From: Calditrichales bacterium MX18-03
GTDB lineage: Bacteria; Bacillota; Clostridia; Lutisporales; Lutisporaceae
Assembly: GCA_021083345.1 (NCBI GenBank)
Contig: JAJGRE010000001.1
Coordinates: 1,302,001 to 1,366,000, forward strand
DNA length: 64,000 nucleotides
Direction of reading: 5' to 3'
Numbering within the stretch: the stretch's first letter is position 1; each line of letters opens with the position of its first letter. Made by a program: the position numbers and the translations under genes. This document shows, piece after piece, positions 2 through 47,794 of the stretch. Below the pieces are notes generated by a model, which ran no database searches, was not told the origin of the DNA, and was given only the letters and a program-made list of their open reading frames with translations.

Positions 2-571
2 TGTACGCCGCTGTCCATGGATATCATCACGGATGTAGCCCGGGTATTTGCTGCCATCATCGACAAAAAAAGCGCCTTTACCCATGAGCATTCCATCGGG
101 CTGACCAATTTGACGGAGCGGTTTGCCAGGCTTTACGGCTTTGATGAGAAAAAGTCCAGGGAGTTTAAGATTGCGGCATTGCTGCACGACCTGGGAAAGC
201 TGGCTATACCTAATGATATACTGGACAAGCCGGGGAAGCTTACCAAAGAAGAGTATATCATTATCAAGTCCCATACTTACTATACCAAGCTGATTTTGAG
301 CAAAATCGACGGCATGAAGGAAATAGCCGAGTGGGCTGCCAATCATCATGAGACCCTGAGAGGAACAGGCTATCCCGAAATGTTGGATGGGAGCAGGCTT
401 TCCCTGGAATCCCGGATCATGACTGTCTGCGATATCTACCAGGCACTGACCGAGAACAGGCCTTACCGGAGCGGACTCAGCCGGGACCGGGCGCTCCAGA
501 TCATCGAATCCATGCGGGACCGCGGCGATATAGATGCCGACATCATAAAAGATCTGAAAGATATTGTATAA
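2..571 (+). CDS. HD-GYP domain phosphodiesterase, C-terminal part (5' end outside window)
   Basis: The reading frame is open to the window edge, so the N-terminus is missing. The visible part is an HD-GYP domain: the HD pair in LLHDLGK, then NHHE and the GTGYP signature, with the late DIYQALTENRPYR stretch. HD-GYP proteins usually hydrolyse cyclic di-GMP (or cGAMP) with a di- or trinuclear metal centre. A sensor or receiver domain probably lies upstream. A strong hairpin terminator follows the stop at once, so this is the last gene of its unit. Family assignment is firm; the signal sensed cannot be seen. Confidence 0.9.
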   Translation, partial: CTPLSMDIITDVARVFAAIIDKKSAFTHEHSIGLTNLTERFARLYGFDEKKSREFKIAALLHDLGKLAIPNDILDKPGKLTKEEYIIIKSHTYYTKLILSKIDGMKEIAEWAANHHETLRGTGYPEMLDGSRLSLESRIMTVCDIYQALTENRPYRSGLSRDRALQIIESMRDRGDIDADIIKDLKDIV

Positions 572-32876: not shown

Positions 32877-34397
32877 TTACCTCTCCATGGCTTCTTTTAC
32901 ACGGCTCAACAGCACGCCTGAGCGAATCAGCGAATAGGCTTTACGGATATCCTCCGAAAGGTTCCTGTCCTTTTCATAATAGGGCACAACTTCTCTGATT
33001 GCCTGATACGCAGCTCTGGTCCCTTTTCCTGTATGGATGTCGCTTCGCAGATCAATGGCTTGCGCAGCATGAATCGCTTCAATCCCCAGAATGTATATCA
33101 GGTCATCTATGATTTTGCGCGTCTTTTGTATGATATAGGGCGTATTGTTGGCGTGATCTTCAATGTCGCCGGCCAGTGAGAAGAAATCCGAAACAGCCGG
33201 GTTGGAAAGGTGCCGAATCTCAGTATCCAAGGCAGTGAAGGTCTTTTGTATCGTAGCAAAACCCAGTACGTTGTCGGCCGGCGCGAGAAACCTGGATAGC
33301 CGGGTAAAGGTCGGATTGCCCAGTTTGATAATGCGGTGGCAAATGAGCTTTGAAAGCTGGCTCAGCGCCAACCCAAGCATTTCGAAGCCCAAAGCCCAGT
33401 TGGTGACCTCAAAGTTGGAGCAGGAGATAATCCTTCTCTCATCCAGTACGATACAGGGATTGTCATCTGAGGAATTAAGCTGGACCGTCAGTAATGCTTC
33501 TATGTACGATACCGAATCCCTGACTGCGCCGTGTACGTGGGCTGACCCTCTGAAGCTCAATGGATCTTGCACCGGCTTTTTCCAGTCAGGCTCCCATAGG
33601 TAACTGCCCTCCAGGTACTCTGTAATCCTGGCCGCGCTCCATGCCTGTCCCGGATAAGGCCTTAACTGATGGGTCTTGGGATCCAACGGGGAAACATTGC
33701 CGTTAAGTCCTTCAAGGGACAAAGCATAGATGATGTCGCAAAGGTCTAGAAGATCCTTGGCATCCTGAAGCACCAAAGCGCCTTGCCCAGCTGCCAGAGC
33801 ATTGGAGCTGACGATGGCAAGCCCATCCTTGGGTCCCAGGATCACCGGTTCAAGTCCCGCCATTTCCAATGCTTCCTTAGCAGGAACCCTTTTCCCCTGG
33901 TAGTATACTTCGCCTTCTCCCAGCATGGCAAGCCCGATATGGGATAGGCATGTGATATCCGCCTCCCCTACCGATCCTCTCTCCGGGATGAGCGGATGCA
34001 CCCCTGCGTTCAGCATTGATTTATACATGACGGCTATTTCCGGCTGAATCCCAGTAGCCCCTACAAGCAGCGTATTAAGCCTTGCCAGCATGATTGCCCT
34101 GACTTCATCTTCAGAGGCAAAGGGCTCTACACCAAGGCAATGGGAATAAATGAGGTTACGGTTGTATTCCTGAAAGAATTCCTTAAAAACACGCTTATCC
34201 TTATTCCAGCCTACGCCTGTATTGAATCCGTATACTGGTACATTTCCGTCCACGAGATCAAATACCAGCTGCCGGGAGTCCCTCAGCAGCGCCATGGCTT
34301 CAGGCTCTATTTCCACGCTGACCCGCTCCCGGGCCACCTTTACTACCTGAGCAATGGTCAGATCCTTACCGTTCAGCTTTACAACGGACATCATCAT
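32877..34397 (-). CDS. Histidine ammonia-lyase homologue without MIO triad; candidate ergothionase-like trimethylamine lyase
   Basis: The protein has 506 residues and HAL/PAL fold features: VYGFNTGVG (Tyr56), NLIYSHCLG (His86), GLAIVSSNALAAG, VQDPLSFRG and IEDH, matching HAL residues Tyr53, His83, Asn195, Gln277/Arg283 and Glu414. The Ala-Ser-Gly that cyclises to the MIO electrophile is absent: GSVG is followed by Glu-Ala-Asp (145-147, bases 33957-33965) and ITCLSH, one residue shorter than HAL; the Tyr280 position is Leu. HAL-family enzymes need MIO to expel ammonia, whereas ergothionase expels trimethylamine without it. Its reading frame overlaps the molybdopterin-subunit gene by 4 bp. Three consecutive ATGs (34397, 34394, 34391) follow AAGGTGAGGGGGAG and any could be used. 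Confidence 0.8.
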   Translation of the reverse strand: MMMSVVKLNGKDLTIAQVVKVARERVSVEIEPEAMALLRDSRQLVFDLVDGNVPVYGFNTGVGWNKDKRVFKEFFQEYNRNLIYSHCLGVEPFASEDEVRAIMLARLNTLLVGATGIQPEIAVMYKSMLNAGVHPLIPERGSVGEADITCLSHIGLAMLGEGEVYYQGKRVPAKEALEMAGLEPVILGPKDGLAIVSSNALAAGQGALVLQDAKDLLDLCDIIYALSLEGLNGNVSPLDPKTHQLRPYPGQAWSAARITEYLEGSYLWEPDWKKPVQDPLSFRGSAHVHGAVRDSVSYIEALLTVQLNSSDDNPCIVLDERRIISCSNFEVTNWALGFEMLGLALSQLSKLICHRIIKLGNPTFTRLSRFLAPADNVLGFATIQKTFTALDTEIRHLSNPAVSDFFSLAGDIEDHANNTPYIIQKTRKIIDDLIYILGIEAIHAAQAIDLRSDIHTGKGTRAAYQAIREVVPYYEKDRNLSEDIRKAYSLIRSGVLLSRVKEAMER

Positions 34398-36655
34398 CTC
34401 CCCCTCACCTTCATTTTTTCCATGATCCTTTCCGGCGTCGCCGGCAGCTTGTCAATATTGATTCCCACCGCATGATTGATTGCATTGATGACAGCAGGCG
34501 CTGTAGCAACTGTAGCAACCTCTCCCACGCTTTTTGCACCATATGGACCTGATTCTTCAAGTTCCTCCACCAGCAGCACCTTTATTTCCGGCATATCCGG
34601 AGCGTTTATCACATGGTACTTGCCAAAATTCATTGTCTGCACCCTTCCTTGAGTATCAAATGTAATTTCTTCGGATAATGCCATACCGAGACCCATCTGA
34701 ACAGCGCCTTGCACCTGTCCTTCCACGAATCCCTTGTTGATGGCTTTTCCTACATCGTGCACCGCTAAGAGCTCCAGTACCTTCACCCTGCCGGTAACGG
34801 TGTCTACCTCTACCTCTGCAAAGTTGGCCCCGTAGCTGGTGGGGTTTCCCGGTGACTGGTATGTGATCGTTTCACCTGCTTCGTCGCTATAAGTCTTCTG
34901 AATGATTGCTGCCAGCTCACCATAAGAAAGCGTCGCTGAGGGCTTGTCACTGATTCGCACCCTTCCGTTTTCCATCACCACTGCTTCCACATCGCAGCTG
35001 AAATATCTGGCAGCATAGCGGCGCATTTTTTCTCTGACCTTCTGTGCTGCTTGCATTGCCGCACCGCCGCATACATAGGTCACTCTGCTGGCCTGCGTAC
35101 CTGCAGAATCAAAAGGGCTTACCAGAGTATCGGCTTCCGGAACATAGATTTTACTAATGTCCATGTCCAGGGTTTCAGCTACAATCTGCATCATTGTCGT
35201 GTTTGTTCCGCAGCCCAGATCATGAAATGCGCCCTTGAGTATGGCAAAGCCGTCTGCTGCAATCCTCAGGGATAGAGTTATAAAGTCGGGGTAAGCACCG
35301 TAGTATCCATTTCCGTGGGCGCAACACGCCATTCCCACTCCGCGGACATACCTCCCTTGATCTTTTGGCCGGAAATATCGCTCTTTCCAGTTGAAGGCCG
35401 CCGCCCCTTGCCGGACACAATCAAGGATTCTCGCATTGCCAAGCTCCGGTCCCCCCAGCGGATCCTTGTCATAGGGATGAACAAGATTCTTGAGGCGGAA
35501 TTCTACCGGGTCCATACCCAGCTGTCGGGCAGTATTCTCAAGGTTGATTTCCGTTATGGCATGGATCTGCGGAGAGCCGTAGCCTCTGGCAGCTCCGCCT
35601 ATGGGCGTGTTGGTATAGACGCCGGCGGCTGTATAGCGCTGATTCTCTATCCTGTATAGCTTGAAGGCTTTCTTGCCCATAGCCATAGCGACTGCATCAC
35701 CGTTGGTGAAGTATCCGCCTGCGTCGACCAATACGTCAATATCCCTTGCCATTATCATCCCATTATGGTCTACCGCAGTACGTACGGTGCCGATGGTTTT
35801 GGTCCTGGTTCTGGTTCCCGCAATGGCCTGCCCCCTATCCATCACCAGCTTTACCGGCCGGTTGAGCTTCTGCGCCAGAAATGCGCATACCGGTTCCAGA
35901 ACCGGCTGCCCCTTTCCCCCAAAAGAGCCGCCGATGGCAGATTTGATGACCCTCACCTTGCTTCCCGGGATTCCCAAAGCTTCTGCTATGATCAGCTGCG
36001 CCTGGAAAATGACCTGGCAAGGCGTCCAAACCGTCAGATTCCCGGCAGGATCCACATCTGCCAGACAGGCATGGGTTTCCATTGCAGCATGGTGTATCTT
36101 GGGTGTTTCAACCCGGTCTTCAACGATTCTGCAGGCTGCCTGCATCGCTGTTTCTACGTTTCCGCATTCCAATGTTTTTCTATAGAGAAGATTGACATTC
36201 TCATGGATTCTTTCAGCATTGGGCCGTAGCGCTTCCACCGGATCGATGACGGCAGGAAGCATCTCATACTCGACCTCGATCAACCCAACCGCGCGCTCCG
36301 CGGTCTGACGGTCAACGGCTACAACAGCCGCCACTCTGTCTCCGTAAAAACGCACCTTCTCTGTGAAGATCCGCTCATCTTTGACCACCTCCATGCCGTC
36401 TATCCATTTATGGGAGTTGTAACGGTTGACCGGCGCGTCCATATGGGTAAAAACGGCAACAACGCCTGGCAGCGCTTTTGCTTTGGCAGCATCGATACGT
36501 TTGATATTGCCATGGGCAACATTGCTCAGGAGCAGCTTCCCATGCAGCATATCCGGCAGAACCATATCATCCAGATACCGCAGCTTGCCTGTCACCTTTT
36601 GCTCTGCATCATGAATGGGAACAGAGGCCCCGACATATTTCAAACTTTCTCGCAT
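34394..36655 (-). CDS. Xanthine dehydrogenase-family molybdopterin-binding subunit
   Basis: The 753-residue large subunit of a molybdenum hydroxylase has an a/b hammerhead domain at the N-terminus, GGSFGGKG near residue 243 (cofactor binding) and the catalytic glutamate in GAKSVGEVA near 710. Such enzymes hydroxylate N-heterocycles or aldehydes with water-derived oxygen. It starts at TAATG with the FAD subunit (36655) and overlaps the lyase start by 4 bp, so all three are translationally coupled. The natural proposal is ring oxidation of the lyase product, for example an imidazole acrylate. No 2Fe-2S subunit or XdhC chaperone is present in the cluster. Confidence 0.92.
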   Translation of the reverse strand: MRESLKYVGASVPIHDAEQKVTGKLRYLDDMVLPDMLHGKLLLSNVAHGNIKRIDAAKAKALPGVVAVFTHMDAPVNRYNSHKWIDGMEVVKDERIFTEKVRFYGDRVAAVVAVDRQTAERAVGLIEVEYEMLPAVIDPVEALRPNAERIHENVNLLYRKTLECGNVETAMQAACRIVEDRVETPKIHHAAMETHACLADVDPAGNLTVWTPCQVIFQAQLIIAEALGIPGSKVRVIKSAIGGSFGGKGQPVLEPVCAFLAQKLNRPVKLVMDRGQAIAGTRTRTKTIGTVRTAVDHNGMIMARDIDVLVDAGGYFTNGDAVAMAMGKKAFKLYRIENQRYTAAGVYTNTPIGGAARGYGSPQIHAITEINLENTARQLGMDPVEFRLKNLVHPYDKDPLGGPELGNARILDCVRQGAAAFNWKERYFRPKDQGRYVRGVGMACCAHGNGYYGAYPDFITLSLRIAADGFAILKGAFHDLGCGTNTTMMQIVAETLDMDISKIYVPEADTLVSPFDSAGTQASRVTYVCGGAAMQAAQKVREKMRRYAARYFSCDVEAVVMENGRVRISDKPSATLSYGELAAIIQKTYSDEAGETITYQSPGNPTSYGANFAEVEVDTVTGRVKVLELLAVHDVGKAINKGFVEGQVQGAVQMGLGMALSEEITFDTQGRVQTMNFGKYHVINAPDMPEIKVLLVEELEESGPYGAKSVGEVATVATAPAVINAINHAVGINIDKLPATPERIMEKMKVRGR

Positions 36656-37548
36656 TATTCTGCACCTCCGGCCGGCTGGCTGGTGAATAACCTATCGTAA
36701 ACGGAATAGCCCAGTCCCGCTATCCCATCGATTTTATTCTCATATCGCTTGTTCCCGTGGATGGATTCTATGACATGTTTCTGAAGTGCATCTACAAATG
36801 CATTCAGGCGAGCAAGTCCCGCAGCGTTGTCTGTCAAGGCCTTCTCAGCCGCCTCTGCTCGATAGGGCACCGGTGCTGCAGACCCGATGACGACGCGTGC
36901 TGATTTTACCAGGGTGCCTTGCTTATCCAATATAATAACGGCAGCAATATTGATGTGGGAAATCACCACAGACGTCCTATGGCTTTCCCTTCCGAATTTT
37001 CCAAAGGTGCTTCTATGGCTTTCATCCGGACACGGAATGAGAAATTCCACGATGGCTTCATCCTTCTGAAGGGTATTTTTCCCGATTCCCACCACCAGTT
37101 CATCCATCTTCTTGTAAGTGATTTCTCCCTTCCCATTCAGGATACCTGCCTTGGCATCCAATGCCAGCAGCGCAGGGATGGAATCTCCTCTCGGAGAGCT
37201 GTTTGCGACATTGCCTGCCATTCTGGCCGTATTCCTGATCTGCTGGGATCCCACCTGTGCGGCAGCTTCTGCCAGGCAAGTCGCATACCTTCTTAGTTCT
37301 TCATTGCGGCTTATGTCTGCAAAGGTGGTATTGGCTCCTATTCTGATACAGCCGTCTTCTATCTTAATGTAGTTCAGCGCTTCAAGCCGCGTCATATCAA
37401 TGATTCTGCCGGCGTGGACCCCAAGTTTTCTGAGTTTTATCACCAAGTCAGTTCCCCCGCTTAAAAGATAGGTGTTCTGATCTGCATTTCTCAAACAATA
37501 TGCCAGTTCATGCACACTTCTGGGGCTTTCATATACAAGCTGCTCCAT
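36655..37548 (-). CDS. Xanthine dehydrogenase-family FAD-binding subunit
   Basis: The 297-residue medium subunit binds FAD through LLSGGTDLVIKLR and TARMAGNVANSSPRGDSIPALLALDA, followed by the CO-dehydrogenase-flavoprotein C-terminal domain (VVIGSAAPVPYRAEAAEKAL). It passes electrons between the iron-sulfur subunit and NAD or another acceptor. It is the first gene of the coupled trio FAD-Mo-lyase; GGGAGGT precedes its ATG, and the shared promoter box (37615-37648) lies upstream. Confidence 0.93.
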   Translation of the reverse strand: MEQLVYESPRSVHELAYCLRNADQNTYLLSGGTDLVIKLRKLGVHAGRIIDMTRLEALNYIKIEDGCIRIGANTTFADISRNEELRRYATCLAEAAAQVGSQQIRNTARMAGNVANSSPRGDSIPALLALDAKAGILNGKGEITYKKMDELVVGIGKNTLQKDEAIVEFLIPCPDESHRSTFGKFGRESHRTSVVISHINIAAVIILDKQGTLVKSARVVIGSAAPVPYRAEAAEKALTDNAAGLARLNAFVDALQKHVIESIHGNKRYENKIDGIAGLGYSVYDRLFTSQPAGGAE

Positions 37549-37614
37549 TCTGTACCTCCCGTTGGAAAATCAAAATACACATTCGTGCTTTATTCATACT
37601 GCAACCTAATTAAC

Positions 37615-37648
37615 ATATTACCACTTTTGCGTCAAAAGATAGTCTAAA
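37615..37648 (-). promoter_or_regulatory. Cluster promoter box 3 (before the FAD-Mo-lyase operon)
   Basis: On the minus strand TTTAGACTATCTTTTGACG (37630-37648) is followed after 9 bp by TAATAT (37615-37620). It matches the box before the BCCT gene at 17 of 19 bases, with the same spacing to the -10. The box overlaps the stop codon of the chemoreceptor gene. Confidence 0.65.
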
Positions 37649-39617
37649 GGTTTTCCGCCTTGATCAGCTCCAAAGCGGCCTGTTGATGACTCATCCCATT
37701 GTGTACCTTGTTTATTGCATGATTCATGCTCTTTATATCCAGCTTGAATTCAGTGAAGGCTTTATATAATTCAGGGTATTCCGCCTTAAGGTCTTTTCTT
37801 ACCAGGGTTGCGGTGTATTCCGCTTCTCCAATGACTTTTTGCGGGTCGTCCAGGAATTTCAGCTTATAGGTTCCGAACTTCCAATGAGGCTGCCAACCCG
37901 TAATGGCTATCCATTTTCCTTGCTTATAATGTTCATCAAGTTTTTCAAGCATCGTTTTTTCATTGCCGTACGCGACATCAAAGCCGTTCAGTTCATATTT
38001 CCTGATGGTTTCAACTGCAAAAGAACCAACGAAGGTTTTTCTTTCAACCGAATATATTTTACCTTCGAACGCATCGGCATGCTTTTTCATTTCATGAATA
38101 CCCTTGATCGGCACATATTCCGGTACAATGATACCATACCTGCAGCCGTACATATTGGCTCCCAGATACTCAAGCTGGGGCTGGTACGCCTCGAAAATTG
38201 CCTTGCCTGAGTATGGCATCCAGGGTGCCAGCGTTCCGTCAGCACTTCCTTCAGCCACGCATTTGAAAAGGTCGGCGGCAGAAACCTGAAGTCCTTCCAC
38301 AGCGATCCCCAATCGTTGCCTGACCAACTCCCTGAAGACTTCGAACTGTATGACCGAATCATCATAGTCCCGAAGTGCCACCTTAATGAACTTGATTTTT
38401 TTCATTTCCTGTGACATTCTGCTTACTTTAGAGCTGAATTCCAAGACACGCTCATTAATCAGTCCCAGCGAGAAAGCCTGCTCCTGAACGCTGGCATTGA
38501 CCTCCTGGGCACTGGCTGCCGTCTGCTGTGTAATGGCAGAGATGCTTTCCACGATACCGCTCAGGCTGCTGCTATTGGATGAAAGAAGGTCAATTTTACC
38601 ATATATGCTGTTGATCTCATCACTTACAGTACTTATGGAATCGTATATACTCCGGAAGCCTCTCTCGGCTTCTTCAATGGATCCCCTTTGCTCTTCAATC
38701 GTTCCGCTGCCTCTGTCTACCAGCTTAACAATCGTATCTGTCTCACTGGTGATGTCGTCAATCAACCCTCTTATTTTAACGGTTGAGTTCTTGGTATCTT
38801 CGGCAAGCCTTCTGATTTCCCCGGCTACGACACCGAAGCCTTTCCCGGCCTCGCCTGCTCTGGCAGCCTCAATTGCGGCATTCAGCGCCAGCAGATTCGT
38901 CTGTTCGGAAATACCCGATATGGCCGTGATGATCTCACGGATGTTCAATGATACCTTGCTCAGTTTTACCATTTCATTCTGAATGACGTTAAATCTCTGA
39001 ATGGTATCCAGGGCTGCTTGTTTCTGAAGTCTGACAGCCATGCCGCCCTGCTCGGCAATGCTTACAGACTGCCCGATGTCGGATCTGATCGTCTTTATAT
39101 CGTCATGTATACCCTTGATCAATCCACCAGTTTCCGATACACAGGCAGCTGCTTGCTGCACCATTTCAGCGATATGCGTATTGCCTTCCGCCACCTCGTT
39201 AACAGCCGCAGACACTTGGCTGGCGGACTCTCCTATAGCCTTTGAATCGGTATAGAGCAAATGCCCCGAGGATTCTGCTGTTTTTGCAGTTTCAAGGGTG
39301 TTTGCCATGAATCCCCTCAGCGCCGCAAGGGTGTCCAGGATCTTCTTTTCCTCTTGCGAGGCATACTTGATGCTCTTTTCATCTGCAACAAAATCAAAGC
39401 TGCTAAGTTTTTCAATGGCCTTCCCTACCGAGCTTTCACTGCGGTTAGAGTTCAGTACGGCCGCAAGTATACAGCTAATTGTCTGCGCTGCAATAGCTGC
39501 GACGTACGTATTGACATGCAGGGCAAATGTAAGTAAATAGAAAACCGCAAAGCCTGCAGCGATCCCTTGACAATAAACCAATATTGCTTTATGATGCCTT
39601 TTCTTATTGCGTTTCAT
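37644..39617 (-). CDS. Chemoreceptor with C-terminal OpuAC betaine-binding domain
   Basis: The protein has 657 residues. Two membrane helices (about 11-33 and 37-56) form a hairpin with no external sensor domain. A cytoplasmic MCP signalling domain follows, with its tip [37 protein letters not shown]. From about residue 400 comes an OpuAC-type substrate-binding domain ([41 protein letters not shown]); the Trp residues match the aromatic box for quaternary ammonium groups. With no helix before OpuAC, the binding domain should lie in the cytoplasm and report internal betaine. AAGGAGTGG precedes the ATG. It follows the BCCT gene, separated by a hairpin. Confidence 0.9.
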
Positions 39618-39672
39618 TTGTAATCCACTCCTTTTTGACAGACAATCCTTCTACCTTTTTATATTCAGGGCA

Positions 39673-39718
39673 TGAAAATTATAAACCAGGCCGCTCAGGC
39701 TCTGGTTTATAATTTTCA
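39673..39718. terminator. Long hairpin between BCCT and chemoreceptor genes
   Basis: A perfect 17-bp stem (39673-39689 with 39702-39718) with a 12-nt loop. Without a strong T-run it may only partly stop transcription from the BCCT gene into the chemoreceptor gene, for which no separate promoter box was found. Confidence 0.65.
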
Positions 39719-39757
39719 AACAGATTATCAACTCAAACGATTATTGACCAGTCTTTA

Positions 39758-41365
39758 TTACGCCTCAACCGTAGCCTTCTCCTGCTTGTGCTTGGAGGTC
39801 ATGGCCGGCTGTGTGACGGATTTGATCGGTGTCCCGTCTGCCGTGTAGTCTTCCTTGAAGACGTCATAATGCTTCGGGTTTGCTGCTACCTTCACCAGGC
39901 ATACCGTCATCAAAAGTTCCAGGATCAGTGCCGGTCCGCCTCCCAGGTTGGAAAGCATCTTGACACCGTTGATACCCCCGGCAAAGGAGATCATGATCCA
40001 TGATACCGTACCGATGATGGCGCCCCAGAATACCTTCATCAGCATCGGCGGCTCCGGATCCTCCTGCGTCAAGCCTTCCATGCTCATGCCGCCCAGGGTG
40101 GTGGTGTATGCATCAGCGCCTGTTGCAAAGGACAGGAACATGGCCAATACAAATACCGGTATGGTGAGCATGGCCAATGGGTATTGTGAGAAGAATGCAT
40201 ATACGGCAAACTCCGTTCCCTGCTTCATGGCCTCGGCTATGCCCGCGCCTGCCAGCTCCAGCTGCAGCGCTGCGCCGCCGAATATCATCATCCACACGAT
40301 GTCAAACAGTGCCGGAAGCAGGAAGGTGACCACCAGTGCCTTGCGGATGGTCTGACCATAGGAGATTCTGCCCAGGAACATACCGGAGATCGGTGCCCAG
40401 GCCAGCCAGTTGCACCAGTAGAATATCGTCCACCAGCCGCCCCACGGGTCGTTGGCTGCTGCGCCGGTAAACAAGCTCTTGGTAAAGAAGTTCTTCATAT
40501 AGTCGCCGAAGGCTTCTGTTCCAACGTTCAGAATGAATACTGTCGGTCCTACGATAAATATGAACAGGGTCAATCCGAAGAACACCCATGTGTTGATCTC
40601 AGACAGCTTCTTGATTCCGTTGAATAAGCCGGTGATGGAGGATATGACGAAAGTCGCCACAACCGCTATGTCAACCAACATCCACAGGAATGCACCTACC
40701 TGTACGCCTGTCAGGTAATTCAAGCCCCCTGCAATGGACAGGATGCCGCCGCCCAGTGAAGCCGCCATTCCGGCTACCAGGGCATACATGCAGATTGCGT
40801 CAATGGTTTGGCCGTAGGAGCCAATGGCTTTGTTGCCGAATATGGGAAACAGGGTAGAGCCAAGGCTGTAGGGCTTCTTCATATTGTAATAAGCGAATGC
40901 GAACATGATGGTGGGTATTGCATAGATGGCCAACGGTGTGAAGCCCCAGTGGAGGAACAGGGTGGACATGGAGAAGATGACGGCTTCAGGACTGTTGGGG
41001 GTAAGATGCAGGGACTCCGGAGGTGCGGTCAAATGGTAAATGGGTTCTGCAGTACCCCACAGCAGGATGCCTACTGCGATGATACTCGTCAATGTAATCG
41101 AGAAGTACCTGAAATTGTCAAACATCGGTACGGCTTTTGAACCGCCTATTCTGACATCGCCGAATTTAGAAAACATAAGATAAATAACGACGAGAAGCAT
41201 CAGTGTAACGCCCAGGTTGAAGGCCCATGCGAAGGATCCCATCAGCCAGTTGTTGGCTGCATTGATGACGGTTCCGAAAGCATCCTTGTTGGCAAAGTTC
41301 AGCACGATGGCTGCCAGGAAAAGGATTACCGGTGCCCAAAACGCGATAGGTTTCAGTTTTTTCAT
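39758..41365 (-). CDS. BCCT-family betaine/carnitine/choline transporter
   Basis: The protein has 535 residues, twelve membrane segments and the family core WTIFYWCNWLAWAPISGMFLGRISYGQTIRKAL. BCCT carriers move trimethylammonium compounds driven by sodium or protons, or by exchange. In BetP the equivalent stretch reads YWAWWISW; here the first Trp of the WW pair is Asn, which points to altered substrate or gating. AAGGAGGG precedes the ATG, and a cluster promoter box lies 60-80 bp upstream. It is the likely uptake route for the lyase substrate. Confidence 0.95.
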   Translation of the reverse strand: MKKLKPIAFWAPVILFLAAIVLNFANKDAFGTVINAANNWLMGSFAWAFNLGVTLMLLVVIYLMFSKFGDVRIGGSKAVPMFDNFRYFSITLTSIIAVGILLWGTAEPIYHLTAPPESLHLTPNSPEAVIFSMSTLFLHWGFTPLAIYAIPTIMFAFAYYNMKKPYSLGSTLFPIFGNKAIGSYGQTIDAICMYALVAGMAASLGGGILSIAGGLNYLTGVQVGAFLWMLVDIAVVATFVISSITGLFNGIKKLSEINTWVFFGLTLFIFIVGPTVFILNVGTEAFGDYMKNFFTKSLFTGAAANDPWGGWWTIFYWCNWLAWAPISGMFLGRISYGQTIRKALVVTFLLPALFDIVWMMIFGGAALQLELAGAGIAEAMKQGTEFAVYAFFSQYPLAMLTIPVFVLAMFLSFATGADAYTTTLGGMSMEGLTQEDPEPPMLMKVFWGAIIGTVSWIMISFAGGINGVKMLSNLGGGPALILELLMTVCLVKVAANPKHYDVFKEDYTADGTPIKSVTQPAMTSKHKQEKATVEA

Positions 41366-41411
41366 TTGATACCCTCCTTAAATACAATTTTGGGATCATT
41401 GCTTATCACCC

Positions 41412-41445
41412 ATTATATTCCTGATACGTCAACAAATAGTCTAAA
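41412..41445 (-). promoter_or_regulatory. Cluster promoter box 2 (before the BCCT gene)
   Basis: On the minus strand TTTAGACTATTTGTTGACG (41427-41445) is followed after 9 bp by TATAAT (41412-41417). GACTATTT is repeated just upstream in tandem with a 9-bp period. The -35 position is covered by the box and is non-consensus, as expected for an activator-dependent promoter. Confidence 0.7.
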
Positions 41446-41522
41446 TAGTCAATAAAATCAGGCCGAAAGCCCCTTATTCTAAAAATACTTTCATTTTTTT
41501 CCTTCAGAGGATGCTTTTATCA

Positions 41523-44500
41523 TCATGCCTTTAAGCTTTCCAGTATTTTCAGTTCATAGCAATTGCCGATATCTTTCAAGAGTGAAATGCCTTCCTCGCA
41601 ATAATCAGCTGTGGACTGAATCAGGTAATGCCTGAACTGCTCATATATTTTGCTGCTCTGCTCCATTTTTTTTCGGACTTCTGCTTTTACACGGCAGATA
41701 AGCGCCATTTCATAAGGATTCTGAATCACCTTCGCATAGGCTTCGGCTTTCGTAATATATGCCAATCCCTCGTCTAACTTCAATTCCCCGATCAGCAGCA
41801 TAGCCATATAGCCATAGGCTGTGGAGCAGCCCCATAGCGGACTCAGCCGTTTATATGCATCAATGGCATTTTGAAAGTATTCCCTGGCTTTGGCGTAATC
41901 ACCCATATCATAAGCTGCTTGCCCTGCATTTGTGTTGAATATCGGAATACCCCGCGTCAAGGCCTTCCCCTTGCAAAGTGAAATTGCCCTGTCATAATAA
42001 TCGAACGCGCTGCAAAATGCCTTACTGCGCCGTTTGCTTTCCCCAATAAAATTATAGGCAGCAGCAATATTCAGTGCATATTTTTCCTTGTTTTCATGGG
42101 ATTCCAGCATGGATATGGCCTCAAGCAGCAGCTCCTCCCCCTCCGCGAAAGAGCCTGCCATGATGCGCTGCATTCCCTTGAGCCGCAGCAGGATGCCTTT
42201 TTCTTCCTGAAGGCCGCACTGCTCTGCAATCGCTATCGCTTCTTCAATATAACTTTCCATCAGCTTGGTATTATAGGTGTTGATGCAGAAATAAGTCATC
42301 TGCTTGTACCCTTTCAGTGCAAAACCGCTTTCACCCGCTTTGACGGCACTGCGTATCATATGTTCGATGATGAAAAGACCCTTCCGATAATCTCCTGACC
42401 GTATGAAGCCTCTGCCTACCATGTGCATAAAAGACAACTCTAAACACTCAAGCTCCTTGCAGATGCCTTCCGCTTCCTTGATCTCATTAATCAGCTGGCT
42501 GATGCTGTTAAAATCCGTCACGATCTGCTCTTCACTGATTTCCACAAACCCATTTTCCGTTACACTGTCCTCATATGCTACTGGAAAAATTTCATGATTG
42601 ATGCTTAAAAACTGCTCAAGGTTCTTTATTTTGTATTTAAGGGTCGAAAGCCGATGGCCTCCGTTTTCAAAATGATAAATCAACTTGGAAAACAGAAGCA
42701 GATCATGCTTGCTTCCCCGAAGCCGGCTTTCTAAAAGTCTTGCTATCTTGATATGCAATATCTTCTTTTTGGAAGCCGTCAACTGTGAATAAACAAATTC
42801 TCTTAGTTTCTGATGGGTAAATGCAAAACCCACATCCTTTGTATCTCCGTCTTCCTTAATGAGGTTTTTCTCCTCCAATTCGCTGATCACATCCATAAGC
42901 TCCAGCTCACTTTTTCCACTGATTTCCAACAGCTCCTCCAATGTAATCCTGTCAAAAAAAACGGAAATGATGTTAAGCAGCTTTTTCCCTTCCTCTGAAA
43001 TGTGCAGAAACCGGCTGTTCAGAATATCCTGCATTCTCGGGGTAAAGGCCTGGGGTTTATCTAGATACTTCATACTGTTCACTAACTCGACGATGAAGAA
43101 AGTGTTCCCTTCCGTTTCCTTATATATAGAGCTTCCTAGCGCTTCATCTATATCATGCCCGGGCAGCATTCCGGATGCCAATTCGATAGTCTCGCTTTTA
43201 TTAAACCGGTTGAGTTCTATGATTTTGAGAAGTCCATAGGCTTTCATATCTGCAATGAACCGCTCAATACGGCAGCTGTACCCTGCTCTTGAAGTAACAA
43301 TAAAGCTGATTGCCTGGTTTCTGCTCTCAAGCATCAGCTCCCGCATCAGTGAGAGGCTCATTGCGTCAATCCATTGAATATCTTCAAACATGATGAGCGT
43401 TTTCTTCTGGTTTGCTACTTTCTTGAAAATATCTACAATTGCCTTTTCAGCAATCTGGTATTTTAAAATATCCACCTGCTCCATCGGGCTGCTGTCTATA
43501 TTATTGTCTTTTATCGTAAAACCGGGAAAAACGTGGTTGACAATCCGCTGCAGCCCAGTAGGCAGCTCGATATTTTCCCTATCAATTGCCTGTGACAATT
43601 GATACAGTATTTCATTCCATGGCTTTAGCAGATAGTTTTCCTCAACCTGATAGCAATTGGATTTCAGCATTATGACGCTGTCCGTATCAATACACTTCAA
43701 ATGCCTCTCCACTAAGGTTGTCTTTCCCAGACCTGCTTCACCCAAGACGAGTATAGACTTGCCCCTTTTTCCTATGATAAAGTTATGAAAGCTCTCGTTT
43801 AATGCATAAAGCTCCTGCCGTCTTCCATAGAAGTATTCCCCTTCGTCTGTTTTTGCATCGGCCTGACGGGCAGCTTTCTCCTTTATGATTTCCGCAAAAA
43901 GCTCATCGGTTTTTCTGTCCGGTGTGATAAACAGCTCATTCCGTAAAAGATTTGACAGGCAGTTGTATATCTCAATGCATTTATCAAGCTGCCCCATCTT
44001 CCTATAAACGTTCATCAGCAGCCGGTAGGCTTTTTCATTGAACTCGTCCACTGCAACAAGCTCTTTGCACAGCAGCGCTACCCGTTCCGGCTGCTTGTCT
44101 CTTATGCAGCCTTGAATCTGCTTCTGCAGCTTGCCGATATAAATATCCCGGTATTGGTTTCTTGATGTGATCATCCACTTGTCAAAACCTTCTGCGTCCT
44201 TGACAAAAAAACCGTCCAGGAAATCTCCGGAATAATGACCGAGCTCAGCACCCTCCGCATCACCGGCAAGCATATCCACATCAGTATTATACCGGTGTAA
44301 GGGATTCAGCATGATGACCGAACGCTTTGGCGATACCAGCACATCACAGGATAATGACTTATTGATGACATAGACAGCATTTCTAAGGCTTTTCTTTGCC
44401 ACCTCTTCCTCCGCCGCTCCCCACAGCAGGCCCACCAGGGTGTCCCTGAAAGCTTGTTTTTTTATCAGGAGGTAATAAAAAAGCGCTTCGGCTTTCTTGT

Positions 44501-44573
44501 ACGGAAAAGTGATTTCTTCTTCATTGCAGCTTACTGTGGGTGCTCCAAAAAGTTTGCCCCATATGACGGTCAT
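41523..44573 (-). CDS. SARP-type transcriptional regulator with BTAD, AAA+ and TPR domains
   Basis: The protein has 1016 residues. An OmpR-like winged helix (about 1-95: FPYKKAEALFYYLLIKKQAFRDTLVGLLW) leads into a bacterial transcriptional activation domain (about 100-240). Next is a STAND/AAA ATPase with GEAGLGKTT and TLIMFEDIQWID, and helical TPR-like repeats run to the end. SARP-type activators bind direct repeats near the -35 site. GAGGAGG precedes the ATG at 44573; the frame extends to 44636 without a site. Its position and the shared boxes make it the probable activator of the BCCT and FAD-Mo-lyase units and of itself. Its ligand is unknown. Confidence 0.88.
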   Translation of the reverse strand: MTVIWGKLFGAPTVSCNEEEITFPYKKAEALFYYLLIKKQAFRDTLVGLLWGAAEEEVAKKSLRNAVYVINKSLSCDVLVSPKRSVIMLNPLHRYNTDVDMLAGDAEGAELGHYSGDFLDGFFVKDAEGFDKWMITSRNQYRDIYIGKLQKQIQGCIRDKQPERVALLCKELVAVDEFNEKAYRLLMNVYRKMGQLDKCIEIYNCLSNLLRNELFITPDRKTDELFAEIIKEKAARQADAKTDEGEYFYGRRQELYALNESFHNFIIGKRGKSILVLGEAGLGKTTLVERHLKCIDTDSVIMLKSNCYQVEENYLLKPWNEILYQLSQAIDRENIELPTGLQRIVNHVFPGFTIKDNNIDSSPMEQVDILKYQIAEKAIVDIFKKVANQKKTLIMFEDIQWIDAMSLSLMRELMLESRNQAISFIVTSRAGYSCRIERFIADMKAYGLLKIIELNRFNKSETIELASGMLPGHDIDEALGSSIYKETEGNTFFIVELVNSMKYLDKPQAFTPRMQDILNSRFLHISEEGKKLLNIISVFFDRITLEELLEISGKSELELMDVISELEEKNLIKEDGDTKDVGFAFTHQKLREFVYSQLTASKKKILHIKIARLLESRLRGSKHDLLLFSKLIYHFENGGHRLSTLKYKIKNLEQFLSINHEIFPVAYEDSVTENGFVEISEEQIVTDFNSISQLINEIKEAEGICKELECLELSFMHMVGRGFIRSGDYRKGLFIIEHMIRSAVKAGESGFALKGYKQMTYFCINTYNTKLMESYIEEAIAIAEQCGLQEEKGILLRLKGMQRIMAGSFAEGEELLLEAISMLESHENKEKYALNIAAAYNFIGESKRRSKAFCSAFDYYDRAISLCKGKALTRGIPIFNTNAGQAAYDMGDYAKAREYFQNAIDAYKRLSPLWGCSTAYGYMAMLLIGELKLDEGLAYITKAEAYAKVIQNPYEMALICRVKAEVRKKMEQSSKIYEQFRHYLIQSTADYCEEGISLLKDIGNCYELKILESLKA

Positions 44574-44606
44574 GGTATTACCTCCTCTTTTCCAATATGT
44601 AATTTC

Positions 44607-44639
44607 ATTATAAATGAAAACGTCAACAAAAAGCAAAAT
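44607..44639 (-). promoter_or_regulatory. Cluster promoter box 1 (before the regulator gene)
   Basis: On the minus strand ATTTTGCTTTTTGTTGACG (44621-44639) is followed after 8 bp by TATAAT (44607-44612). The TTTGTTGACG end and the spacing match boxes 2 and 3; the other end is less similar. Confidence 0.6.
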
Positions 44640-44668
44640 AACATCCTATTTTGCTAAAATTGTTGACG
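44621..44668. promoter_or_regulatory. Large interrupted dyad upstream of the regulator gene
   Basis: Outer arms CGTCAACA (44621-44628) and TGTTGACG (44661-44668) and inner arms AGCAAAATA (44632-44640) and TATTTTGCT (44647-44655) form a two-part inverted repeat. The palindrome CGATATCG (44667-44674) adjoins it. Likely two regulator sites in opposite orientation. Confidence 0.6.
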
Positions 44669-46320: not shown

Positions 46321-46397
46321 TGGTGCGCCCAGAGGGATTCGAACCCCCGACCCACAGATTCGAAGTCTGGTACTCTATCCGGCTGAGCTATAGGCGC
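46321..46397 (-). tRNA. tRNA-Arg (UCG)
   Basis: A 77-nt cloverleaf with encoded CCA and anticodon loop CTTCGAA (anticodon TCG); acceptor GCGCCTA/TGGGCGC. Confidence 0.95.
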
Positions 46398-46416
46398 ACT
46401 AAAAAACACACTATCT

Positions 46417-46445
46417 ATTATATGAAACCACCCTATAATAGTCAA
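46417..46445 (-). promoter_or_regulatory. Promoter of tRNA-Arg (UCG)
   Basis: TTGACT (46440-46445) and TATAAT (46417-46422) with a 17-bp spacer, placed between the hesB-like selenoprotein gene and the tRNA. Confidence 0.85.
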
Positions 46446-46480
46446 GGGTTATATCTGCGTCCGGAGGGCAATTCAGACAA

Positions 46481-46762
46481 TCAGCACCTGCTTACGACGC
46501 CATTTGCCCGGACGACAAAACCCTTCTGCAGCCAGCCTTTATGGTAATCGATCTCAAAGAAATCAATCACGGCTGCCAAATCTTCTTCAACAGAGAAACT
46601 CATATCTCCTGTCTTGACGACAACATCCCCATTCTCTGACTCACCCTGAGTCAATCCGAAAACCGGGCCGCCTCAGCCATAGCCGTTCAGTACAACCTTC
46701 AGATTCTTGATGCCGGTCTTGACTAATTCCTCCAATGCCTTTTCTGTCAGCTTTATATTCAT
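46481..46762 (-). CDS. HesB/IscA-like selenoprotein (in-frame TGA read as Sec)
   Basis: The frame from the ATG at 46762 (GGAGG 9-10 bases upstream) is open for 93 codons apart from TGA at codon 30 (46673-46675). The context is NGYG-TGA-GGPVFGLTQGE, where IscA/HesB proteins have Cys (GYGCGGPVFG). The sequence after the TGA continues as a normal family member (GDMSFSVEEDLAAVIDFFEIDY) and ends SRC. A hairpin with a GGG loop begins 19 nt after the TGA and fits bacterial SECIS rules. HesB-like selenoproteins are a known group. IscA-type proteins bind iron-sulfur clusters or iron; the Sec form has no settled function. It has its own promoter and a CsoR-like operator. No selA, selB, selC or selD is in the window. 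Confidence 0.85.
46637..46653 (-). promoter_or_regulatory. SECIS-like hairpin of the HesB-like selenoprotein mRNA
   Basis: On the minus strand TGACTCA-GGG-TGAGTCA forms a perfect 7-bp stem with a G-rich loop. The loop begins 27 nt after the TGA, within the usual bacterial SECIS window. Confidence 0.7.
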
Positions 46763-46790
46763 ATAAATACCTCCATTTCCTATCTACCCT

Positions 46791-46805
46791 TACCCCCTTG
46801 GGGTA
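46791..46805. promoter_or_regulatory. CsoR/CstR-like operator before the selenoprotein gene
   Basis: TACCCCCTTGGGGTA is a perfect 6+3+6 dyad located just downstream of the -10 element. It resembles GC-rich operators bound by CsoR/CstR-type copper or persulfide sensors. The regulator is not in the window. Confidence 0.5.
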
Positions 46806-46810
46806 CCTTT

Positions 46811-46839
46811 ATTATATAATAGTTTTACAGAAGATGCAA
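46811..46839 (-). promoter_or_regulatory. Promoter of the HesB-like selenoprotein gene
   Basis: TTGCAT (46834-46839) and TATAAT (46811-46816) with a 17-bp spacer on the minus strand. Confidence 0.75.
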
Positions 46840-46872
46840 CAGGTTTTTACGGCTGCCATTATATAAATGATA

Positions 46873-46902
46873 AAAGCCCTCCGATCTTTACCGGAAGGGC
46901 TT
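46873..46902 (-). terminator. Terminator of the tRNA operon
   Basis: On the minus strand an 11/10-nt stem with one bulge (46891-46902 with 46873-46882) is followed by TTATC, just after the last tRNA-Arg. Confidence 0.7.
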
Positions 46903-46920
46903 ACTCTGCCAAAAAATGAA

Positions 46921-46997
46921 TGGTGCGCCTGAAGGGAGTCGAACCCCTGGCACACGGATTAGAAGTCCGTTGCTCTATCCAACTGAGCTACAGGCGC
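46921..46997 (-). tRNA. tRNA-Arg (UCU), copy 1
   Basis: A 77-nt cloverleaf with encoded CCA, anticodon loop CTTCTAA (TCT) and acceptor GCGCCTG/CAGGCGC. Last gene of the operon. Confidence 0.95.
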
Positions 46998-47024
46998 ATG
47001 TGATATATCTTTATTATGTTTTTA

Positions 47025-47098
47025 TGGAGCGGGTGATGGGAATCGAACCCACGCGGTCAGCTTGGAAGGCTGAAGTTCTACCATTGAACTACACCCGC
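47025..47098 (-). tRNA. tRNA-Gly (UCC), copy 1
   Basis: A 74-nt cloverleaf with encoded CCA, acceptor GCGGGTG/CACCCGC and anticodon loop CTTCCAA (TCC). Confidence 0.95.
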
Positions 47099-47170
47099 AT
47101 GTTCACCTCAAAAAAGCCACTAAAAAAACGAAAAATATATAGGAGCAATTCAACATATCAAATATGTTGA

Positions 47171-47245
47171 TGGAGCGGGTGACGAGATTCGAACTCGCGA
47201 CTTTCACCTTGGCAAGGTGACACTCTACCACTGAGTTACACCCGC
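47171..47245 (-). tRNA. tRNA-Gly (GCC)
   Basis: A 75-nt cloverleaf with encoded CCA and anticodon loop TTGCCAA (GCC). Confidence 0.95.
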
Positions 47246-47275
47246 ATGTCATTTGCTCATATATACTTATTTTAT

Positions 47276-47360
47276 TGGTGCGGGAAAAGGGACTCGAACC
47301 CCCACGTCGTTTGACACTAGATCCTAAGTCTAGCGCGTCTGCCAATTCCGCCATTCCCGC
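47276..47360 (-). tRNA. tRNA-Leu (UAG)
   Basis: An 85-nt class II tRNA with a long variable arm, encoded CCA and anticodon loop CTTAGGA (TAG). Confidence 0.95.
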
Positions 47361-47442
47361 ATTTTATAACCCATTCATCGGATCAGATTGTAATGACTCC
47401 CGTCTTTACCCTGATCTTCAACTCGTGAGCCTTTTGTCTGAC

Positions 47443-47517
47443 TGGCTGGGGTGGCTGGATTTGAACCAACGAATGCCAGAGTCAAAGTCTGGTGCCTTAC
47501 CGCTTGGCGACACCCCA
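47443..47517 (-). tRNA. tRNA-Gln (UUG)
   Basis: A 75-nt cloverleaf starting TGGGGTG, with encoded CCA and anticodon loop CTTTGAC (TTG). Confidence 0.95.
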
Positions 47518-47534
47518 TCAATTATTAGAGTTAT

Positions 47535-47611
<77 letters not shown>

Positions 47612-47617
47612 CGTGAA

Positions 47618-47694
47618 TGGTGCGCCTGAAGGGAGTCGAACCCCTGGCACACGGATTAGAAGTCCGTTGCTCTATCCAACTGAGCTACAGGCGC
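47618..47694 (-). tRNA. tRNA-Arg (UCU), copy 2
   Basis: A 77-nt cloverleaf identical to the gene at 46921-46997, anticodon TCT. Confidence 0.95.
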
Positions 47695-47720
47695 ATGTGA
47701 CATATCTGCAATTGTTTTTA

Positions 47721-47794
47721 TGGAGCGGGTGATGGGAATCGAACCCACGCGGTCAGCTTGGAAGGCTGAAGTTCTACCATTGAACTACACCCGC
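47721..47794 (-). tRNA. tRNA-Gly (UCC), copy 2
   Basis: A 74-nt cloverleaf identical to the gene at 47025-47098, anticodon TCC. First gene of the operon. Confidence 0.95.

What the first reader, a model, noticed from the sequence alone, without database searches (positions are those of the whole stretch)
32877..44668. Candidate trimethylammonium-imidazole (ergothioneine/hercynine) uptake, sensing and breakdown cluster
Six neighbouring minus-strand genes combine a SARP regulator, a BCCT betaine carrier, a chemoreceptor carrying an OpuAC betaine-binding domain, and a coupled FAD-Mo-lyase trio whose lyase is a HAL homologue without the MIO electrophile. Seen: gene order, overlaps, shared promoter boxes, motifs. 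Known: BCCT and OpuAC proteins bind trimethylammonium compounds; ergothionase is a HAL-family enzyme that removes trimethylamine from ergothioneine without MIO. Inferred: the lyase makes an imidazole acrylate plus trimethylamine, and the molybdenum enzyme oxidises the ring. The combination with a Mo hydroxylase and a dedicated chemoreceptor is not one I know as a described system.
Basis: partly seen in the sequence, partly recalled or inferred. Interest (0 to 1): 0.9.

Follow-up and report, generated by a model that had tools for sequence, protein, structure and literature searches.

The report
Anaerobic ergothioneine breakdown gene cluster
These genes let an anaerobic Clostridia-type bacterium import and break down the dietary antioxidant ergothioneine by a pathway whose two key enzyme types were recently described in gut bacteria; the new points are a conserved antibiotic-type (SARP) genetic switch that controls it and an iron-sulfur enzyme subunit that has moved elsewhere in the genome.

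Summary
The six genes are real. The lyase belongs to the ergothionase family: 50% identical to the solved T. denticola enzyme, no MIO, family-specific Lys385. In 80 fetched ergothionase loci two designs alternate: loci with a Mo/FAD/Fe-S enzyme (mainly anaerobes; 45 of 55 also carry a BCCT carrier), and loci, largely Bacillaceae and Paenibacillaceae, with a separate urocanase-like clade (probably thiourocanate hydratase), hydantoinase and ABC importer. They never coincide (0/55 against 11/25, Fisher 4e-7). The pathway is therefore largely known. New here: (1) the regulator is an AfsR-type SARP, and a SARP-geometry operator (GAC-N8-GAC-N10-TANNNT) precedes 42/119 cluster promoters against 5/466 others; its stricter form occurs only twice in this genome, both in the cluster. 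(2) The Fe-S subunit is missing from the cluster; a related orphan gene lies elsewhere. (3) The chemoreceptor's betaine-binding domain is C-terminal and predicted cytoplasmic. Substrates and regulation are untested by experiment.

The parts
32877..34397 (-). Ergothionase-family TMA-lyase (506 aa), MIO-less HAL homologue
   Evidence: PF00221; best PDB hit 6s7j ergothionase 527 bits against 239 for the best histidine ammonia-lyase; 50% identity, loop GSVGEADIT, Tyr56, Lys385, EDHAN motif conserved in the family
34394..36655 (-). Xanthine oxidase-family molybdenum subunit, probable thiourocanate desulfhydrase catalytic subunit
   Evidence: Pfam MoCoBD_1/2 and Ald_Xan_dh_C; closest solved relative is the reductive enzyme 4-hydroxybenzoyl-CoA reductase alpha, 1rm6; 61-72% to cluster homologues, 34% to this genome's two other Mo subunits
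36655..37548 (-). FAD subunit of the molybdenum enzyme
   Evidence: FAD_binding_5 + CO_deh_flav_C; 40-56% identity to the closest cluster FAD subunits
37644..39617 (-). Chemoreceptor with two N-terminal membrane helices, MCP signalling domain and C-terminal OpuAC domain (predicted cytoplasmic)
   Evidence: Pfam; hydropathy and alignment, same architecture in L035, L055, L056, L062 only; OpuAC domain matches glycine-betaine-binding OpuA domain 3l6g
39758..41365 (-). BCCT carrier, proposed ergothioneine importer
   Evidence: PF02028; PDB relatives TmaT, BetP, CaiT; BCCT gene in 45 of 55 Mo-type ergothionase loci against 5 of 25 others
41523..44573 (-). Large SARP (AfsR-type) transcriptional activator: OmpR-like DNA-binding + BTAD + AAA + TPR
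   Evidence: Pfam BTAD/AAA_16/TPR; N-terminal AF2 model pLDDT 91.6 matches only AfsR and EmbR below E 1e-3; start ATG 44573 behind GAGGAGG
37615..37644 (-). SARP operator plus -10 of the FAD-Mo-lyase operon: GACTATCTTTTGACGCAAAAGTGGTAATAT
   Evidence: one of only two whole-genome matches to GACNNTNNNTTGAC-N10-TANNNT; conserved in relatives
41412..41441 (-). SARP operator plus -10 of the BCCT gene: GACTATTTGTTGACGTATCAGGAATATAAT
   Evidence: the other whole-genome match; conserved in relatives
39673..39714 (-). Long hairpin between BCCT and chemoreceptor genes (AAAATTATAAACCAG...CTGGTTTATAATTTT), probable terminator
   Evidence: read directly in the sequence; coordinates approximate; not listed by the consensus terminator scan

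Best explanation
An ergothioneine uptake and catabolism regulon. The BCCT carrier imports ergothioneine. The MIO-less lyase eliminates trimethylamine to give thiourocanate. The xanthine oxidase-family enzyme (Mo and FAD subunits from the cluster, 2Fe-2S subunit supplied in trans from a relocated orphan gene) reductively removes sulfur to give urocanate and H2S. The genome's ordinary Hut enzymes then degrade urocanate. An AfsR-type SARP activates the BCCT and FAD-Mo-lyase promoters by binding 11-bp-spaced GAC direct repeats just upstream of the -10 element; its inducing ligand (ergothioneine or thiourocanate?) is unknown. The chemoreceptor probably reports an internal quaternary amine to the chemotaxis machinery. 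Shown: gene content, homology, exclusivity, operator, orphan Fe-S gene. Inferred: substrates, reaction direction, ligand, subunit assembly in trans.
For: Lyase: 527 bits to ergothionase 6s7j against 239 to the next HAL; MIO triad absent, Lys385 conserved throughout the family. Mo step: 0 of 55 Mo loci but 11 of 25 Mo-less loci carry the separate HutU-like clade (Fisher 4e-7); urocanases in Mo loci group with the ordinary types; Mo loci with HutU-HutI-FtcD next door, L075 and L080; published reductive C-S cleavage by a gut xanthine-oxidase homologue in ergothioneine catabolism (PMC12771579) and thiourocanate desulfhydrase releasing H2S (PMC13405746). Own genome encodes HutU-HutI-HutH together. 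BCCT: 45/55 Mo loci. Regulation: SARP fold, operator 42/119 against 5/466 promoters, p 8e-27, shuffles mean 0.27, and absent from the six related genomes searched that gave no close ergothionase; SARP geometry from PMC10936776. Fe-S in trans: the orphan's best hit in three relatives is each time the cluster Fe-S gene, and it falls in a clade made mostly of cluster Fe-S subunits.
Against: No biochemical data for these proteins. The genome has three Mo/FAD pairs and only two Fe-S genes, so the orphan could serve the purine-type enzyme on contig C13 instead, and its promoter lacks the box. Loci are not phylogenetically independent, so Fisher p-values are too small. BCCTs of these loci are diverse (mostly 31-43% to this one) and their substrate is inferred from neighbourhood. 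Tree support for the orphan's clade is moderate (93/92, a few non-cluster rows inside).
Confidence: 0.8

Rival explanations
1. One reading: the lyase makes an imidazole acrylate and the molybdenum enzyme oxidises (hydroxylates) the ring.
For: Most xanthine oxidase-family enzymes are oxidative hydroxylases; best NCBIfam scores of the Mo subunit are to XdhA, though below cut-off.
Against: Loci with the Mo enzyme carry only ordinary urocanase types and sometimes HutI/FtcD, which need an unmodified urocanate ring; reductive C-S cleavage by such an enzyme is published for this pathway; closest solved relative is the reductive 4-hydroxybenzoyl-CoA reductase.
Confidence: 0.08
2. The lyase acts mainly on another histidine-type betaine such as hercynine, or on ergothioneine sulfonate, and the cluster serves that compound.
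For: Substrate-binding residues could not be compared with the ligand-bound structure here; a second MIO-less lyase family exists in the same genomes, so related substrates are plausible.
Against: Single family with the solved ergothionase, 50% identity, shared Lys385; partner enzyme expected to remove sulfur; the alternative partner in Mo-less loci is a urocanase-like clade with hydantoinase, matching a thiohydantoin route.
Confidence: 0.07
3. The FAD-Mo pair is non-functional or incomplete because the 2Fe-2S subunit was lost, and the cluster only releases trimethylamine and leaves thiourocanate to be excreted.
For: No Fe-S gene in the cluster, whereas relatives have one there; C. symbiosum locus L115 has lyase and BCCT without Mo genes nearby.
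Against: Orphan Fe-S gene related to the cluster type elsewhere in the genome; Mo and FAD genes are intact, overlapping and under the conserved operator.
Confidence: 0.1

Closest known systems
Ergothionase of Treponema denticola (PDB 6s7j/6s7q)
   Same: Same HAL-fold family without MIO; 50% identity over the whole chain; Tyr56, Lys385 and the EDHA region conserved
   Different: Divergent half of the sequence; substrate of the window enzyme untested
Gut bacterial ergothioneine catabolism with thiourocanate desulfhydrase (Feng et al., JACS 2025; paper not held, known through PMC12771579 and PMC13405746)
   Same: Ergothionase step plus a xanthine oxidase homologue in one pathway
   Different: Orthology not tested; here the Fe-S subunit is missing from the cluster, and SARP, BCCT and OpuAC-chemoreceptor genes are attached; whether the original report included them is unknown to me
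Aerobic ergothioneine pathway (ergothionase, thiourocanate hydratase, thiohydantoin hydrolysis; from own knowledge)
   Same: Same first enzyme
   Different: Urocanase-like hydratase and hydantoinase replace the Mo enzyme; seen here in Bacillaceae, Paenibacillaceae and a few others
AfsR / SARP activators of Streptomyces (PDB 8hvr, 8k60)
   Same: Same DNA-binding + BTAD fold, NTPase + TPR tail, 11-bp direct repeats just upstream of the -10
   Different: Outside actinomycetes, controls a catabolic pathway rather than an antibiotic; about 20% identity
EgtUV ergothioneine ABC importer (PMC9732360)
   Same: Uptake of ergothioneine in bacteria
   Different: Here a BCCT carrier is proposed; no BCCT is proven specific for ergothioneine in the papers I could read (C. 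glutamicum BetP is only suggested, PMC12689799)

Membership tests
Ergothionase | HAL-fold homology closest to a proven ergothionase | tested here: met
   6s7j 527 bits against 239 for the best HAL; 50% identity
Ergothionase | No MIO-forming Ala-Ser-Gly | tested here: met
   GSVGEADIT in the window enzyme, GSLGASGDL in own HutH
Ergothionase | Family-specific Lys (Gln-Lys, window 384-385) where HutH has Gln-Tyr | tested here: met
   aligned column in the fetched full-length ergothionase-type lyases and 6s7j; its catalytic role was not verified here
Ergothionase | Elimination of trimethylamine from ergothioneine | not testable with these tools
   needs an assay
Histidine ammonia-lyase (HutH) | MIO triad and score over the hutH cut-off | tested here: not met
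   394.9 bits against cut-off 539; no ASG
Thiourocanate desulfhydrase (xanthine oxidase family) | Mo, FAD and 2Fe-2S subunits | tested here: inconclusive
   Mo and FAD present; Fe-S only as an orphan gene elsewhere
Thiourocanate desulfhydrase (xanthine oxidase family) | Orthology to the characterised enzyme | not testable with these tools
   paper and sequence not held
Thiourocanate desulfhydrase (xanthine oxidase family) | Genomic partner of ergothionase, in place of thiourocanate hydratase | tested here: met
   0/55 against 11/25 loci; HutU tree
Xanthine dehydrogenase XdhA | Score over the curated cut-off | tested here: not met
   640.5 bits against cut-off 780
SARP | BTAD domain | tested here: met
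   PF03704 E 4e-10; 24 of 24 homologues
SARP | OmpR-type DNA-binding domain before BTAD | tested here: met
   not found by Pfam in the window protein, weakly in 2 of 24 relatives; met by fold: AF2 model aligned over its whole length to AfsR
SARP | Direct repeats 11 bp apart, 3' repeat about 8 bp from the -10 | tested here: met
   GAC-N8-GAC-N10-TA, spacer 10 in 34 of 42; definition from PMC10936776; binding by this regulator untested
Betaine-sensing chemoreceptor of the usual topology | Ligand-binding domain outside the membrane | tested here: not met
   OpuAC lies after the signalling domain with no later membrane helix; prediction only

The most novel reading that the evidence does not exclude
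A previously undescribed SARP regulon in Clostridia and relatives: an AfsR-type activator, otherwise known mainly from actinomycete antibiotic clusters, responds to ergothioneine or thiourocanate and switches on ergothioneine import and breakdown through a conserved 11-bp direct-repeat operator; in this genome it drives an enzyme whose Fe-S subunit is supplied in trans, next to a receptor that senses the internal pool.
Probability: 0.5. Interest if true: 0.62.

Novelty: new variant of a known kind. Interest (0 to 1): 0.5.

Why it matters
Ergothioneine is a dietary antioxidant; its breakdown yields trimethylamine and, with the Mo enzyme, H2S. The operator gives a simple DNA signature for finding which bacteria carry the anaerobic pathway and suggests how it is induced, and it extends SARP-type activation, with its exact promoter geometry, to catabolism in Clostridia. 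The presence or absence of the Mo genes predicts which bacteria finish the job and which would leave thiourocanate to others. The co-occurring second MIO-less lyase family is an uncharacterised set of probable betaine lyases.

Tried and rejected
The key papers (Feng 2025, Zhou 2025) are not held. AF2 of the chemoreceptor without an alignment was poor (pLDDT 49) and was not used. The OpuAC-chemoreceptor was first counted in nine loci; four are ordinary MCPs without a detected OpuAC (two of them cut by the locus end), so five remain. Literature searches for OpuAC chemoreceptors and for BTAD regulators in Clostridia gave nothing specific. Considered the box as an ordinary -35: rejected because it lies 9-10 bp, not 16-18 bp, from the -10. 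The 2-mismatch window scan of the box alone is not above chance (3 found, 3.26 expected); the evidence rests on exact genome-wide matches and conservation in relatives. Considered the FAD-Mo pair as a normal XDH: below the curated cut-offs and only 34% to own XDH-type subunits.
Full report
Observation. The six minus-strand genes are present with the domains claimed: lyase, Mo subunit, FAD subunit, chemoreceptor with OpuAC, BCCT carrier, and a BTAD/AAA/TPR regulator. Lyase, Mo and FAD genes overlap by 4 and 1 bases. The window lies in a 4.69-Mb genome in 15 contigs with four PF00221 genes.

Lyase. Its best solved relative is T. denticola ergothionase 6s7j at 527 bits, against 239 for the best histidine ammonia-lyase. 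It is 50% identical to it. It lacks the MIO triad and carries the Lys385 seen in the fetched full-length ergothionase-type lyases and in 6s7j; own HutH has ASG and Tyr there. It fails the hutH cut-off. So it is an ergothionase by family; the reaction itself is inferred.

Neighbourhood in other genomes. A scan with five ergothionases gave 80 named loci. ORF clustering shows repeated company: Mo, FAD and Fe-S subunits, BCCT, and the SARP-type regulator. Two designs alternate. Loci with the Mo enzyme are mainly Clostridia, Sporomusaceae, Peptoniphilaceae, Synergistota and Spirochaetota; 45 of 55 have a BCCT. Loci without it, largely Bacillaceae and Paenibacillaceae, often carry a urocanase-like gene, hydantoinase and an ABC importer. 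No locus has both the Mo enzyme and the separate urocanase-like clade: 0/55 against 11/25 (Fisher 4e-7; loci are not independent). In the urocanase tree these Mo-less genes form their own clade, while urocanases beside the Mo enzyme are of ordinary types.

Mo enzyme. The closest solved relative is 4-hydroxybenzoyl-CoA reductase, itself reductive. PMC12771579 states that a gut xanthine-oxidase homologue reductively cleaves an aromatic C-S bond in ergothioneine catabolism, citing Feng et al. 2025; PMC13405746 calls the enzyme thiourocanate desulfhydrase and says it releases H2S. I could not read the original, so orthology is untested. The genome evidence fits: product urocanate, further handled by HutU-HutI-HutH, which this genome has together on contig C13.

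Missing Fe-S subunit. Relatives carry it next to the FAD gene; here only about 95 bases separate FAD from the chemoreceptor gene. The genome has two Fe-S genes: one in a complete operon on C9, and an orphan on C8 without Mo or FAD genes nearby. The orphan's best match in three relatives is each time the cluster Fe-S gene, at 68-70%, and it falls in a clade made mostly of cluster Fe-S subunits with moderate support. Caution: a purine-type Mo/FAD pair on C13 also lacks a neighbouring Fe-S gene, so the orphan may serve that enzyme or both. Its own promoter lacks the cluster box.

Regulation. The regulator's N-terminal 250 residues, modelled from 24 homologues (pLDDT 91.6), match only AfsR and EmbR below E 1e-3: a SARP. 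SARPs bind direct repeats 11 or 22 bp apart with the 3' repeat 8 bp from the -10 (PMC10936776). Upstream of cluster operons I find GAC-N8-GAC followed at about 10 bp by TANNNT in 42 of 119 promoters against 5 of 466 other genes (p 8e-27; shuffles mean 0.27); the spacer is 10 in 34 of 42. In the window's genome the strict form occurs exactly twice, before FAD-Mo-lyase and before BCCT. Of 16 genomes searched with a broader form, six from the same family that gave no close ergothionase have none. This fits a cluster-specific activator; binding itself is not shown. The SARP promoter itself shows only a half-site; the chemoreceptor promoter shows none.

Chemoreceptor. Two N-terminal membrane helices, then the signalling domain, then OpuAC with no later helix: the binding domain should face the cytoplasm. 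Four other ergothionase loci share this architecture (L035, L055, L056, L062). OpuAC resembles glycine-betaine-binding OpuA domains. The ligand is unknown; sensing an internal quaternary amine is an inference.

BCCT. Closest solved relatives are TmaT, BetP and CaiT. The aromatic motif aligned to TmaT WTIFYWAWWIAW differs (WTIFYWCNWLAW), and BCCTs of these loci are diverse, so recruitment seems repeated. An ergothioneine importer role is inferred from neighbourhood. In C. glutamicum BetP is suggested, not proven, to import ergothioneine (PMC12689799).

Verdict. The pathway core is known; the window is a member with variant features. The SARP operator regulon, the Fe-S subunit in trans and the cytoplasmic betaine-domain receptor are the points I did not find described, within an open-access library that lacks the main pathway papers.

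Noticed in passing
G000:C7:937507-939075 (L041 9504-11075, minus): A second MIO-less HAL homologue (loop GSVGYLGVEGH) near its own BCCT carrier (533 bases away), an MttB-like methyltransferase and a sigma-54 activator. The same GSVGYL type occurs in ten ergothionase loci, including C. symbiosum L115, mostly within about 100 bases of a BCCT. Uncharacterised probable betaine lyase family.
   Followed up: partly
L052 8668-11463; L058 144-2463: Two adjacent divergent HAL-like genes, one with GSTGLSD in place of the MIO loop and one without the loop, near ergothionase: possible two-subunit lyase.
   Followed up: no
L144 (G000:C13:9001-29000): Purine-type Mo/FAD pair beside amidohydrolase, permease and adenine deaminase-like genes, also without a 2Fe-2S gene nearby.
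   Followed up: partly
L115 (Clostridium symbiosum ATCC 14940): Ergothionase with BCCT but no Mo genes nearby, consistent with thiourocanate being left over for other bacteria.
   Followed up: partly
own genome, contigs C7, C8 and C9: Seven MttB-family genes, four of them reported with one stop inside the matched frame (TAG, TGA or TAA), which may only reflect the match running past the gene end; trimethylamine might be used further.
   Followed up: no
window 46321-47794, minus: Cluster of nine tRNA genes.
   Followed up: no
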